From a virus: 35,833 nt of DNA. Every line of letters begins with the position of its first letter. The stretch's first letter is position 1. The DNA lies in IMG/VR virus record IMGVR_UViG_3300038301_000232, positions 1 through 35,833 of that record; one strand, 5' to 3'. The translations under genes were made by a program, and so were the position numbers. Positions 2-4,187 of this stretch are shown in pieces. The notes beneath the pieces were generated by a model. That model ran no database searches. It was not told the origin of the DNA and saw nothing but the letters and a program-made list of their open reading frames with translations.

Positions 2-619
2 AAAGCCGAAACGGTAGAAGGCAAGGCGCCACGGAGAAAAAGAGGCTATCACTATTTATTTAATACACGACTTAAGACGGTGTTGTGGAAGGTAGGTGAA
101 CAGATTATGAAGAAAACTAATCCGTTTTACAGGGACATCTACCTTGCTCACCGGGAAAAGCTTGAAAATAAAAACAAAGCAGGAGGGTACCCAAGGGCGT
201 TTGTGTATGGTGTTAGTAAGGCTCAGGCCTTTAAGAACAGGATTAGTAAGTTGCAAGATAATGGATATGGGATTGTTTATAGAGATAAGCTTAATGATGT
301 TTTCAAGGGTGTTGATGTATTGTCATCAGATGAAAAAGTACAAGAGCAATTGGATGAAGGTAAAAAGTACCCGATAATCATAAAGGAAGAAGGTGTTTCT
401 TCCGGGCATATCTTTGCAATGGCAAAGCGCAAAGCGGCGAAAGTGTTTCTCTTCCACTTTTACGAGGCGTGGCGAACGCTCGAAGGTCTTCCGGTGCGGC
501 CACCTTATGTAATTGAAAAACTTGGACACACGGGCTTTGTTTCCTGGCAAGATCTCAAGAAGGTATTAATTGCTGAAGAAGCTGCAGCAAAGGAAAATCT
601 GAAAAAGAAAAAAGCTTAG
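2..619 (+). CDS. tas: Tas-like Nop-domain protein (IS110 Tnp_20-like C-terminus), 5' partial
   Basis: Likely RNA-binding effector of a TIGR-Tas system. The frame is open from base 2 to the stop at 617-619, so the gene starts before the window; the first in-window start-like codon (80) falls inside conserved sequence and is not the real start. Visible, numbering from base 2: GYHYLFNTRLKTVLWKVGEQ (residues 15-34), NPFYRDIYLAHREKL, then GHIFAMAKRKAAKVFLFHFY (from 135) and EGLPVRPPYVIEKLGHT. This order resembles the C-terminal Tnp_20 domain of IS110 transposases, which is related to the Nop fold of Tas proteins. About 65 residues separate the two blocks, more than I expect in IS110. The tail is Lys/Ala-rich with no HNH-like motif. 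A RuvC domain, if any, would lie upstream, so TasA and TasR cannot be separated. The array begins 12 bases downstream, which strongly supports Tas over a transposase; no insertion-sequence ends are visible. The family match is from memory of motifs. Confidence 0.72.
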   Translation, partial: KAETVEGKAPRRKRGYHYLFNTRLKTVLWKVGEQIMKKTNPFYRDIYLAHREKLENKNKAGGYPRAFVYGVSKAQAFKNRISKLQDNGYGIVYRDKLNDVFKGVDVLSSDEKVQEQLDEGKKYPIIIKEEGVSSGHIFAMAKRKAAKVFLFHFYEAWRTLEGLPVRPPYVIEKLGHTGFVSWQDLKKVLIAEEAAAKENLKKKKA

Positions 620-631
620 TTAAGATGGAAG

Positions 632-1206
632 TTAAAAACAGAATTATAGTGTGAGTTAATACAGATTTTAAAAACAATGATATAGTGTGAGATACTTAGA
701 GGGTTAATAACGAGAGCAAGATTTGAGCAAAGGATGCAATTAAAAACCATGGTTGATTTCGAGAAGATAAGGAAATTAAAAACACTGTAATTGTTTGAGA
801 CGCATTGGAGATTAATAACAGGGGGAGTATTTGAGAAAAAGGATGCATTGAAAACAAGAATTTCATTTGAGATATCATGTCTTTTAAAAACGAAGGAGAC
901 ATTTGAGAAAGATTTAACATTAAAAACAAAATAGGGATTTGAGACAAGGGTAGTATTAAAAACTGATGTACTTTTTGAGGAATAATTGTATTAAAAACCG
1001 ATGTGTTTTTTGAATTAAAGAGGTTATTAAAAACAGCGTAGATTTTTGAGTTATTGAGATGATTAAAAACGGGTATCTGATCTGAGCGATAGATGGATTT
1101 AACAACAAACACGAAATTTGAGAAATTAATAGTATTAAAAACGCGATGTCTATTTGAGCCGTAACTATCATTAACAACAGATATGATATTTGAATTAGGA
1201 GAAAAA
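632..1206 (+). repeat. TIGR-like array: 16 units of 36 bases with two conserved blocks and two variable segments
   Basis: Sixteen units start at 632, 668, 704, 740, 776, 812, 848, 884, 920, 956, 991, 1027, 1063, 1099, 1135 and 1171. Each reads TTAAAAAC, 10 variable bases, TTTGAG, about 12 variable bases. The period is 36 throughout except one step of 35 (956 to 991). TTTGAG starts exactly 18 bases after TTAAAAAC in every unit. Variants are TTAATAAC, TTGAAAAC and TTAACAAC for block one, and TGTGAG, TTCGAG, TCTGAG and TTTGAA for block two. The variable segments mostly differ from each other. The array starts 12 bases after the tas stop and ends at the ribosome binding site of the next gene. Known TIGR arrays give 36-nt tigRNAs with two short spacers between edge and loop repeats, and this matches that plan. 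It is not CRISPR: no block is longer than 8 bases. Alternatives are an operator or iteron array. Direction is inferred from the upstream gene. Confidence 0.8.
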
Positions 1207-1207
1207 T

Positions 1208-2290
1208 ATGAAACTTGATTTTGTGATTTATGCAAATTCTAATCATACTGGCTTTGGGACGCATGCAAGAGGTGTGATGAAGGCATTGTGCCTCGCTGGA
1301 AAAAACATTGCCTTTGTGCCAGTTCAGCCAATAGCGCACCAGATAATTGATAGTCCTTGGCTTGAGTGGCTTGAAAGGTCGCTCCGGAATAGGGAGTACC
1401 TTACAGGCAAAGATCCGGCAATAATGATTCATCATGCAGAATCAATGATAAGGTTTTGCGGGAAGCCCAGGTGCGGTTTTGCAATTTTTGAGACGAACAA
1501 GATACATGCAAAGGATATAGTTTATTACAAGACGTTGGATAAAATACTCGTACCGTCGCAATGGGGCAAACAGGTATTGATTGATAATGGCTTGGATGGG
1601 AATGAAATAATGATTATGCCGGAGGGCTACGATCCAGAAAATTACTACGTGAAACATTCTATTGATGAAGTAATCCACAGATGGAAGCAGCGGGGGTATC
1701 TTTCGTTTTTCCATTGTGGGAAATATGAAGATCGCAAATCAAGCACAATGATAATCCATGCATTTCAACAGGCGGTCAATGAATCCGGTGTTATGGCTCA
1801 GTTATACATGAAATGCGAGAATCCTTTTAATGGTATATGGTTTGAAGAATTTGAACACGCACGAGGTGATTGTGAGTTTATACATACTTATGGCCAGGGT
1901 AATATAGAAAATATGGACATATTATATCATAATTTTGATTTCGGGTTATATGCGAGTAAGGGAGAAGCATTTGGCTTGCCAATAATTGAATCCATTGCAT
2001 GTGGACTTCCCACAATAACCTCGAATTGGAGTGGACAGAGTGAATACCTGAAAGAATATCCAAGAGAATTATTAATTACCAAAGGTACACAAGAATTAGC
2101 CAATGACGGAATGTTTTTCAATGGTAACCATGGCAATTGGATTGTGCCTGATTATGACCAATTGGTTGAAAAGATCAAATATGTATTGGAAAACGCAGAA
2201 GATATTTATAGGAATGCGCGCCAAAAATGTGTGGATTCGGTTAAAGATTTTACTTGGAAGAATGCTGTAAGGAGGCTAATCGATGGTTAA
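1208..2290 (+). CDS. GT4-family glycosyltransferase
   Basis: A 360-residue retaining glycosyltransferase of the GT-B fold, expected to move a sugar from a nucleotide-sugar donor to an unidentified acceptor in the cytoplasm. The N-terminal half has the opening glycine-rich segment NSNHTGFGTHARGVMKAL (residues about 11-28). The C-terminal half carries the family's E-x7-E region, GEAFGLPIIE (about 252-261), followed by SIACGLPTITS and a conserved Glu near YL. The length is normal for a single-domain GT4 enzyme. The ATG is preceded by TTAGGAG, which forms part of the last array unit, so the gene follows the array without any gap and may be co-transcribed with it. The next gene overlaps its end by 8 bases. 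Two more GT4 genes lie at 23392 and 24766. The family is clear; donor and acceptor cannot be read from sequence. Confidence 0.88.
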   Translation: MKLDFVIYANSNHTGFGTHARGVMKALCLAGKNIAFVPVQPIAHQIIDSPWLEWLERSLRNREYLTGKDPAIMIHHAESMIRFCGKPRCGFAIFETNKIHAKDIVYYKTLDKILVPSQWGKQVLIDNGLDGNEIMIMPEGYDPENYYVKHSIDEVIHRWKQRGYLSFFHCGKYEDRKSSTMIIHAFQQAVNESGVMAQLYMKCENPFNGIWFEEFEHARGDCEFIHTYGQGNIENMDILYHNFDFGLYASKGEAFGLPIIESIACGLPTITSNWSGQSEYLKEYPRELLITKGTQELANDGMFFNGNHGNWIVPDYDQLVEKIKYVLENAEDIYRNARQKCVDSVKDFTWKNAVRRLIDG

Positions 2291-2657: not shown

Positions 2658-3974
2658 TTGAAAATAATACAGAAATCAATTGAAGTTGGTATCGGACAGT
2701 TAGAAAACTGGAAACATAACGCGCGGGAAATACACAAATCAGACTTTGAAAGGCTTAAAGAGCAAATAACTGATCTCGGTATCTATAAGCCCATGGTTTG
2801 CTATGAAGAAGCCGGTAAGTACATTGTCCTTGGCGGAAACATGAGGCTGCGAGCAATAAAGGAATTAGGCTATGAAAAAGGGTGGATTACCGTAGTATTG
2901 CCGGATAACGAGGAAGAGAAGATTAAAATCAACCTAAGCGATAATGACCGGGCTGGTTTTTACGATGACGAAGCTTTTGCAGAGGTAATTTACCCATTTA
3001 AGGATAATGAAATATGGAGTAATTACAAACTGGATTTTAATATTCCGGACAAAACGGTTGACGATTTTGCACGTGAGCAATTCGAAGAAGAAGAAACGGC
3101 AGGGAATACAGATGATGACGCGGTGCCGGGTTTGCCAGATGAGGCAAAAACCAAGCTTGGTGAGTTGTGGGTATTGGGTGATCACCGGGTTTTATGTGGG
3201 GATGCAACAAAAAGAGAGGATGTTGGCCAGTTGATGAATGGACAACTAATTGATTTACTGTTTTCTGATCCGCCGTATGGGGTGTTAATTGGCGATAAGA
3301 ATAAGATGCTTGACGAAATGGAGTATAATAGCAGGAAAAGCACATCGAAAGAGACTGGCAGAATCATAACAAATATTAAAAATGATACAATGTCTGTAGA
3401 AGATTTAAAAGATATGTTGACTACTGCTTTTTTAAATATAAAGAATGCCAGCAATGATAAATGCTCTTATTACGTAACTGCTCCTCAAGGCGGCGATCTT
3501 GGCATGATGATGATGATGATGAAAGACGCTGGCCTTCCGGTAAGACATGTGATCATATGGGTAAAAAACAGACAATGCTTTTCAATGGGCAGGCTTGATT
3601 ACGAGTATAAACATGAACCAATATTATACACTTGGAATAAAAGCCATGAATTCCATGGAAAGGGGAAGCACCTTAATTCTGTATGGGAAGTGGACAAGGT
3701 ACAAAAATGCGACATTCACCCAACCATGAAACCTGTAGATTTGATAATCAATGCTATAAAAAACAGTTCATTAGAAGGAAATAGTGTAGCTGATACTTTC
3801 CTTGGATCAGGCTCGACACTAATAGCCTGTGAAAAGACAAACCGTAAATGCTACGGTATGGAACTTGACCCATTGCATATAGATGTGATTTTGCAAAGAT
3901 GGGCTGACTTTACAGGCGAAGATCCTGTCAGGGAAGATGGTGTTAAGTGGAGCGATATAACTACTTTGACTTAA
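2658..3974 (+). CDS. ParB-like domain fused to DNA N6-adenine/N4-cytosine methyltransferase
   Basis: A 438-residue two-domain protein starting with TTG. Residues about 5-95 form a ParB/Srx-like domain: FERLKEQITDLGIYKPMVCY, then GKYIVLGGNMRLRAIKELGY. Residues about 165-430 form an amino-methyltransferase of the PF01555 type, with the catalytic motif SDPPYGV near residue 204 and the SAM-binding motif DTFLGSGSTLIACEKTNRKC near 380. DPPY before FxGxG is the beta-class order. HPTMKP, usual just before the SAM motif in this class, is also present. Both domains look complete. Such fusions are common in phages and prophages and probably methylate phage DNA, often against host restriction. No restriction nuclease is next to it, so it looks like a solitary enzyme. 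Target sequence and whether it modifies A or C are unknown. Confidence 0.9.
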   Translation: MKIIQKSIEVGIGQLENWKHNAREIHKSDFERLKEQITDLGIYKPMVCYEEAGKYIVLGGNMRLRAIKELGYEKGWITVVLPDNEEEKIKINLSDNDRAGFYDDEAFAEVIYPFKDNEIWSNYKLDFNIPDKTVDDFAREQFEEEETAGNTDDDAVPGLPDEAKTKLGELWVLGDHRVLCGDATKREDVGQLMNGQLIDLLFSDPPYGVLIGDKNKMLDEMEYNSRKSTSKETGRIITNIKNDTMSVEDLKDMLTTAFLNIKNASNDKCSYYVTAPQGGDLGMMMMMMKDAGLPVRHVIIWVKNRQCFSMGRLDYEYKHEPILYTWNKSHEFHGKGKHLNSVWEVDKVQKCDIHPTMKPVDLIINAIKNSSLEGNSVADTFLGSGSTLIACEKTNRKCYGMELDPLHIDVILQRWADFTGEDPVREDGVKWSDITTLT

Positions 3975-4187
3975 TCATGAAATCGCATCTGTATTGCCGA
4001 TCAACTGCATGAGTTTGATAGATTCCGAGCTTCAAGCAGCCGTGATATCCGGCCACTTGGGAATAAGGAAACCTGTAACAGGTAGTGTCATCAGGTAGCA
4101 TCCTTTAAATTGAGCCTGTCGAATAACAAGGAGGAATCTATCAGTTCATAATCACTTGCCGCGTATGGCAGAAAGGATATCAAGATT

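What the first reader, a model, noticed from the sequence alone, without database searches (positions are those of the whole stretch)
632..1206. Array geometry: two blocks in exact half-phase, 18 + 18 bases
TTTGAG starts exactly 18 bases after TTAAAAAC in all 16 units, and the next TTAAAAAC starts 18 bases after TTTGAG except at one unit (17). A single repeat would not need this symmetry. It suggests one protein or RNA fold that treats both halves alike, as expected of paired C/D-like boxes in a guide. UUGAG or CUGAG could play the part of a D-like box, but I cannot assign boxes securely.
Basis: seen in the sequence. Interest (0 to 1): 0.8.

Follow-up and report, generated by a model that had tools for sequence, protein, structure and literature searches.

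The report
Phage TIGR guide-RNA array beside TasA
A phage carries a row of 16 tiny two-part guide RNAs next to the gene for the protein that should carry them, so the striking 18 + 18 spacing is the known signature of the recently described TIGR-Tas RNA-guided DNA-binding systems, here in a diverged, nuclease-free version.

Summary
The geometry is real. Sixteen units at 632-1206 alternate TTAAAAAC and TTTGAG blocks. Loop follows edge by 18 bases in 16/16 units; edge follows loop by 18 in 14/15 and by 17 once. Autocorrelation at lag 36 is z = 12; lags 18 and 54 are weaker (z = 3.0, 2.5). It is a TIGR array. The ORF cut by the window start (2-619) is the C-terminus of a Tas protein: phmmer hits TasR 9mty (6.5e-8) and TasH (9.5e-7). 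Contig L002, 99.96% identical here, carries the whole gene (374 aa) plus a second array upstream. The predicted fold's ten best PDB matches are all TasH/TasR, then IS621. No nuclease domain precedes the coiled coil, so it is TasA. Relatives with under 50% identical Tas carry arrays with other repeats but the same geometry (36-nt loci: 99/104 edge-loop and 97/102 loop-edge steps are exactly 18). In register with the closest relative the unit reads edge TTAAAAACR, spacer A 9, loop TTTGAGnnR, spacer B 9. Diverged features: UU instead of UG in box D, eroded box C, a putative zinc-binding insertion, no terminator. No spacer target rose above chance. New member of a known kind.

The parts
2..619 (+). 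C-terminal 205 codons of the tasA gene, cut by the window start (complete 374-aa gene on contig L002 395-1519)
   Evidence: phmmer to TasR 9mty 6.5e-8 and TasH 9.5e-7; PHROG 4285 1.2e-20; fold match to TasH/TasR; complete on L002
632..1206 (+). TIGR array of 16 units: edge repeat (9) - spacer A (9) - loop repeat (9) - spacer B (9)
   Evidence: register from relative L010
632..640 (+). First edge repeat TTAAAAACA (consensus TTAAAAACR); the others start at 668, 704, 740, 776, 812, 848, 884, 920, 956, 991, 1027, 1063, 1099, 1135, 1171
650..658 (+). First loop repeat TGTGAGTTA (consensus TTTGAGnnR); the others start 18 bases after each edge repeat
956..990 (+). The one 35-base unit, with a loop-to-edge step of 17
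1171..1206 (+). Last unit: no closing edge repeat; its spacer B (GGAGAAAAA) overlaps the likely ribosome-binding site of the next gene
   Evidence: Sequence; units
1208..2290 (+). Glycosyltransferase gene (GT4-like) directly after the array; neighbour, not shown to be part of the system
   Evidence: Pfam PF00534 1.1e-12

Best explanation
A phage-encoded TIGR-TasA system. The array is transcribed rightward, cut at the edge repeats into 36-nt tigRNAs (each half edge - A - loop - B - half edge), and each tigRNA is held by a TasA homodimer, one protomer on the edge repeat and one on the loop repeat. That twofold symmetry is what imposes the 18 + 18 spacing. Spacers A and B (9 nt each) would pair with opposite strands of one DNA site. 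TasA lacks a nuclease, so the complex would bind and bend DNA and block transcription or replication rather than cut. Shown here: array, geometry, Tas homology and fold, second array, absence of a nuclease domain. Inferred from the characterised relatives: processing, dimer loading, DNA targeting. Not known: the targets and the benefit to the phage.
For: Geometry and conservation. Tas homology by sequence and fold. Complete tas gene flanked by arrays on both sides on L002. Most relatives found by a Tas alignment carry 34-37-nt dual-repeat arrays beside tas, as does the published SpTIGR of Salicola phage CGphi29, the positive control. No intrinsic RNA fold of 36-mers (mean z 0.06) or of the whole array, as expected of compact dual-repeat arrays. 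Published structure and processing: PMC12045711.
Against: Box C (CCA in most relatives) is only ACR/nnR here and box D is UU instead of UG, so binding by the same contacts is not certain. The array lacks the usual closing edge repeat and terminator. No DNA target was found above chance in the phage itself, in the other phage contigs, or in two IMG/VR scans with one control scan. The whole tas gene is seen on contig L002, not in the window record.
Confidence: 0.93

Rival explanations
1. Box C/D snoRNA-like guides that direct RNA modification: the Nop-type protein would recruit a methyltransferase to RNA targets.
For: Nop5 is a distant fold match; two-guide symmetry is shared.
Against: No Rfam match, no C/D consensus, the ten best fold matches are DNA-targeting Tas proteins; no fibrillarin- or L7-like gene was seen beside the array in the part searched (one search covers eight ORFs only).
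Confidence: 0.02
2. A relic: a decayed TIGR array no longer used, since box C is eroded and the ends are atypical.
For: Box C degenerate in the loop repeat, no terminator, one-base length changes.
Against: 16/16 edge-loop steps of 18, intact 374-aa tas frame, identical array in a second contig; related zinc-insert Tas proteins use similar repeats (L013: AAGTAACA/AATGAGTTA).
Confidence: 0.04
3. An ordinary tandem repeat or coding repeat, for example the minus-strand frames that run through the array.
For: 36 is a multiple of 3 and minus-strand ORFs of 179 and 159 aa cross the array.
Against: Only the two short blocks are conserved while the stretches between them vary like random sequence; the 35-base unit would shift the reading frame; the neighbouring gene is Tas and relatives keep the geometry with different letters.
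Confidence: 0.01

Closest known systems
TIGR-TasA systems (Faure et al. 2025, PMC12045711)
   Same: Nuclease-free Nop-domain Tas protein; dual alternating repeats with 9-nt spacers; 36-nt unit; arrays on both sides of tas; in phages.
   Different: Repeats start UU instead of UG, box C is not CCA, the protein has a putative zinc-binding insertion (conserved Cys/His, residues about 137-164) and a further insertion of about 70 residues with a low-confidence model; no terminator.
SpTIGR-TasH of Salicola phage CGphi29 (L005)
   Same: 36-nt dual array beside tas, steps of 18 (one 19); homologous C-terminus and fold.
   Different: TasH has an N-terminal HNH nuclease; its repeats are AAGACAACCA/AAGCGAGCCA.
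TaTIGR-TasR (PDB 9mty)
   Same: Same fold; the symmetric dimer reads edge and loop repeats alike.
   Different: RuvC nuclease; UG...CCA boxes.
IS110/IS621 bridge-RNA recombinases
   Same: Shared Pfam domain (PF02371) and partial fold (8wt6, 8wt9).
   Different: No DEDD nuclease domain ahead of the coiled coil here, and an array of short guides instead of one bridge RNA.
Box C/D snoRNP (Nop5)
   Same: Nop-type coiled coil and two-guide symmetry.
   Different: No C/D consensus, no Rfam match, only a weak fold match (E 1.4).

Membership tests
TIGR-Tas | Array of two alternating 8-12-nt repeats separated by about 9-nt spacers | tested here: met
   9+9+9+9 in 36-nt units, 16 units.
TIGR-Tas | Adjacent Tas protein with a Nop-type domain | tested here: met
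   phmmer 9mty 6.5e-8 and TasH 9.5e-7; Foldseek top ten all TasH/TasR.
TIGR-Tas | Edge and loop repeats share box D and box C motifs that covary | tested here: inconclusive
   Box D UU is in both repeats (edge 16/16, loop 13/16), and both repeats end mostly in a purine, but the other box C bases differ between edge (AC) and loop (nn).
TIGR-Tas | Truncated edge repeat and terminator at the 3' end (the paper says 'typically'; not defining) | tested here: not met
   The array ends in a loop repeat that runs into a ribosome-binding site; no terminator-like site there in the matching part of L002.
TIGR-Tas | Processing to 36-nt tigRNA bound by Tas | not testable with these tools
   Needs RNA sequencing.
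TIGR-Tas | Spacers A and B pair with opposite strands of one DNA site | tested here: inconclusive
   No target above shuffled-pair or wrong-orientation controls; IMG/VR scans gave 4 and 6 stretches against 1 for one mis-paired control, with no convincing shared target.
TasA subtype of TIGR-Tas | No nuclease domain N-terminal to the coiled coil | tested here: met
   Modelled coiled coil starts at residue 19; no nuclease Pfam match in the complete protein.
Box C/D snoRNA | C (RUGAUGA) and D (CUGA) boxes, recognised by Rfam models | tested here: not met
   Consensus; no Rfam match at E up to 1.
CRISPR | Single 25-36-nt repeat with spacers of similar size | tested here: not met
   Two alternating 9-nt repeats with 9-nt spacers; the adjacent gene is Tas.
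IS110 transposase | N-terminal DEDD RuvC-like nuclease ahead of the coiled coil | tested here: not met
   Coiled coil from residue 19 with no domain before it; an array is present instead of a bridge RNA.

The most novel reading that the evidence does not exclude
A nuclease-free TIGR system used by the phage for gene control rather than defence: the array doubles as the leader of the glycosyltransferase gene, its last half-unit overlaps that gene's ribosome-binding site, and TasA bound there would couple tigRNA processing to expression of the gene. Altered boxes (UU/ACR) and the extra putative zinc-binding insertion would make it a distinct TasA recognition class.
Probability: 0.1. Interest if true: 0.65.

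Novelty: new member of a known kind. Interest (0 to 1): 0.4.

Why it matters
It shows that the twofold 18 + 18 geometry outlasts the letters: in TIGR arrays of phages whose Tas proteins are under 50% identical, half-unit steps stay at 18 (17 or 19 in some loci) while the repeats change almost completely, as expected if a symmetric protein dimer sets the spacing. The phage is a compact test case for how nuclease-free TasA works and for how far the box C/D rules can bend. Comparison of three related phage contigs with tas 93-99% identical also suggests that spacers change much faster than the gene, which bears on the open question of where TIGR spacers come from.

Tried and rejected
Self-targeting: all 21 A/B pairs against the window in four order/orientation combinations, with gaps of 0-2, were no better than shuffled pairs. 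Cross-targeting: 173 pairs against 17 phage contigs showed no excess of near-perfect matches in the B+rc(A) orientation over a shuffled-pair control (one mismatch: 4 against 5; two mismatches 125 against 78, from one shuffle, and wrong-orientation searches gave 96-116). IMG/VR scans with two real pairs (4 and 6 stretches) and one mis-paired control (1 stretch): some hits are copies of one phage, and the one shared site lies in an IMPDH-like gene of two phages, read as coincidence. RNA folding of units: no structure beyond shuffles. Rfam: nothing. Host assignment: no Tas relative in genome contigs by this query or in plasmids; the terminase has only distant relatives. Spacer duplication inside the window phage's arrays: only weak (28/500 shuffles reach it for A, none in excess for B), though clear for B spacers in two other phages.

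Full report
Observation. The window holds 16 units at 632-1206. Edge-like blocks (TTAAAAAC, 11 exact, 5 with one change) and loop-like blocks (TTTGAG, 10 exact, 6 with one change) alternate. Loop follows edge by 18 bases in all 16 units; edge follows loop by 18 in 14 of 15 and by 17 once. Against 300 dinucleotide shuffles of the region the self-match at lags 36 and 72 is z = 12, and at 18 and 54 it is z = 3.0 and 2.5.

What lies beside it. The window starts inside an open frame that ends at 619. Its 205 residues match TasR (9mty, E 6.5e-8) and TasH (E 9.5e-7) and PHROG 4285, annotated 'transposase'. The window is a whole virus record cut at that point. A second IMG/VR contig, L002, is 99.96% identical over the first 2,329 bases and carries the rest: a 374-aa protein (with a possible later TTG start at 443) and a second array at 218-406, upstream of tas. 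That protein passes the Pfam cut-off of PF02371, the IS116/IS110/IS902 transposase family. An AlphaFold2 model (pLDDT 83, pTM 0.78) has TasH and TasR as its ten best PDB matches, then IS621 and, weakly, Nop5. Its coiled coil begins at residue 19, so there is no room for a nuclease domain: it is TasA.

A four-member Tas alignment found 29 viral loci. A period scan and stacked units show 34-37-nt dual-repeat arrays beside tas in nearly all of them, with quite different letters. In the eleven other loci with 36-nt arrays that were parsed with 18-base steps, 99 of 104 edge-to-loop steps and 97 of 102 loop-to-edge steps are exactly 18 (summed). Loci with periods of 34, 35 or 37 have halves of 17-19, and where one repeat is a base longer (L029, L033) the ends of the repeats keep the 18. 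So the spacing does not drift freely and both blocks are conserved. Exceptions exist: no array was seen in L003, and irregular ones in L014 and L018.

Register. The closest relative with an array, L010 (about 45% identity to the window phage's TasA), reads TGAGAACCA - 9 - TGCGAGCCA - 9. Laying the window array in the same register gives edge TTAAAAACR, spacer A 9 nt, loop TTTGAGnnR, spacer B 9 nt; the ninth position is a purine in 13/16 edges and 16/16 loops. By the published assignment box D is the start and box C the end of each repeat. Here box D is UU in both repeats, and box C has kept little more than its last purine. A tree of 22 Tas proteins puts the window phage's TasA with L010, L003, L013 and L014 (support 96/95). 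All five share a Cys/His-bearing insertion (alignments), which I read as a zinc-binding knuckle; that reading is inference.

Mechanism. In the solved TasR complex a symmetric dimer holds one 36-nt tigRNA, one protomer on each repeat, and the two 9-nt spacers pair with opposite DNA strands (PMC12045711). The half-phase geometry follows from that symmetry. TasA has no nuclease, so binding and bending without cutting is the expected outcome. Processing, loading and targeting are inferred, not shown here.

Unusual points. The array ends in a loop repeat, not a truncated edge, and spacer B of the last unit overlaps the likely ribosome-binding site of a glycosyltransferase gene; a terminator scan of the matching L002 stretch found nothing between the array and that gene. 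Spacers are poor in C (8% against 15% in the genome strand). No targets were found.

Array dynamics. Window and L002 arrays are identical (their one difference over 2,329 bases is in tas), and the partial array of L008 differs by one base, inside an edge repeat. By contrast L026, L028 and L030 have tas regions 93-99% identical while their arrays align only in short pieces and spacers in apparently corresponding places differ by one to several bases. In two other phages B spacers repeat more often than chance, so unit duplication with divergence is one possible source of new spacers; these are observations from a few contigs.

Verdict. A member of TIGR-Tas, subtype TasA, with diverged boxes. 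The mechanism is known for relatives; the phage benefit and the targets remain open.

Noticed in passing
L026, L028, L030 (arrays beside tas): Tas regions of 93-99% identity but arrays that no longer align except in short pieces; apparently corresponding spacers differ by one to several bases.
   Followed up: partly
L010 about 4009-4030: The closest relative's tas frame holds two in-frame TAA codons, one straight after ATGGACAAGATT: pseudogene, sequencing error or recoding, not resolved.
   Followed up: no
L038-L047 (contigs of L026, L028, L030): Further dual-repeat array candidates with the same motifs lie far from tas in these phages, some on the other strand.
   Followed up: no
L002 309-344 and window 704-739: Spacer A of one upstream unit and one downstream unit differ by one base (AGAGCAAAA, AGAGCAAGA), with different spacer B partners.
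   Followed up: partly
window 704-739 and 812-847: The B-spacer stretches share AAAGGATGCA, shifted by one base in register.
   Followed up: no
window 2658-3974: ParB-N plus N6/N4 DNA methylase fusion gene two genes past the array (ParB_N match below its curated cut-off). The TasParB described with TasA is a parB-like gene in operon with tasA; this one was not compared with it.
   Followed up: no
L003: A clear member of the same Tas clade with no dual-repeat array in the 10 kb held; a stem-loop array was not sought.
   Followed up: no
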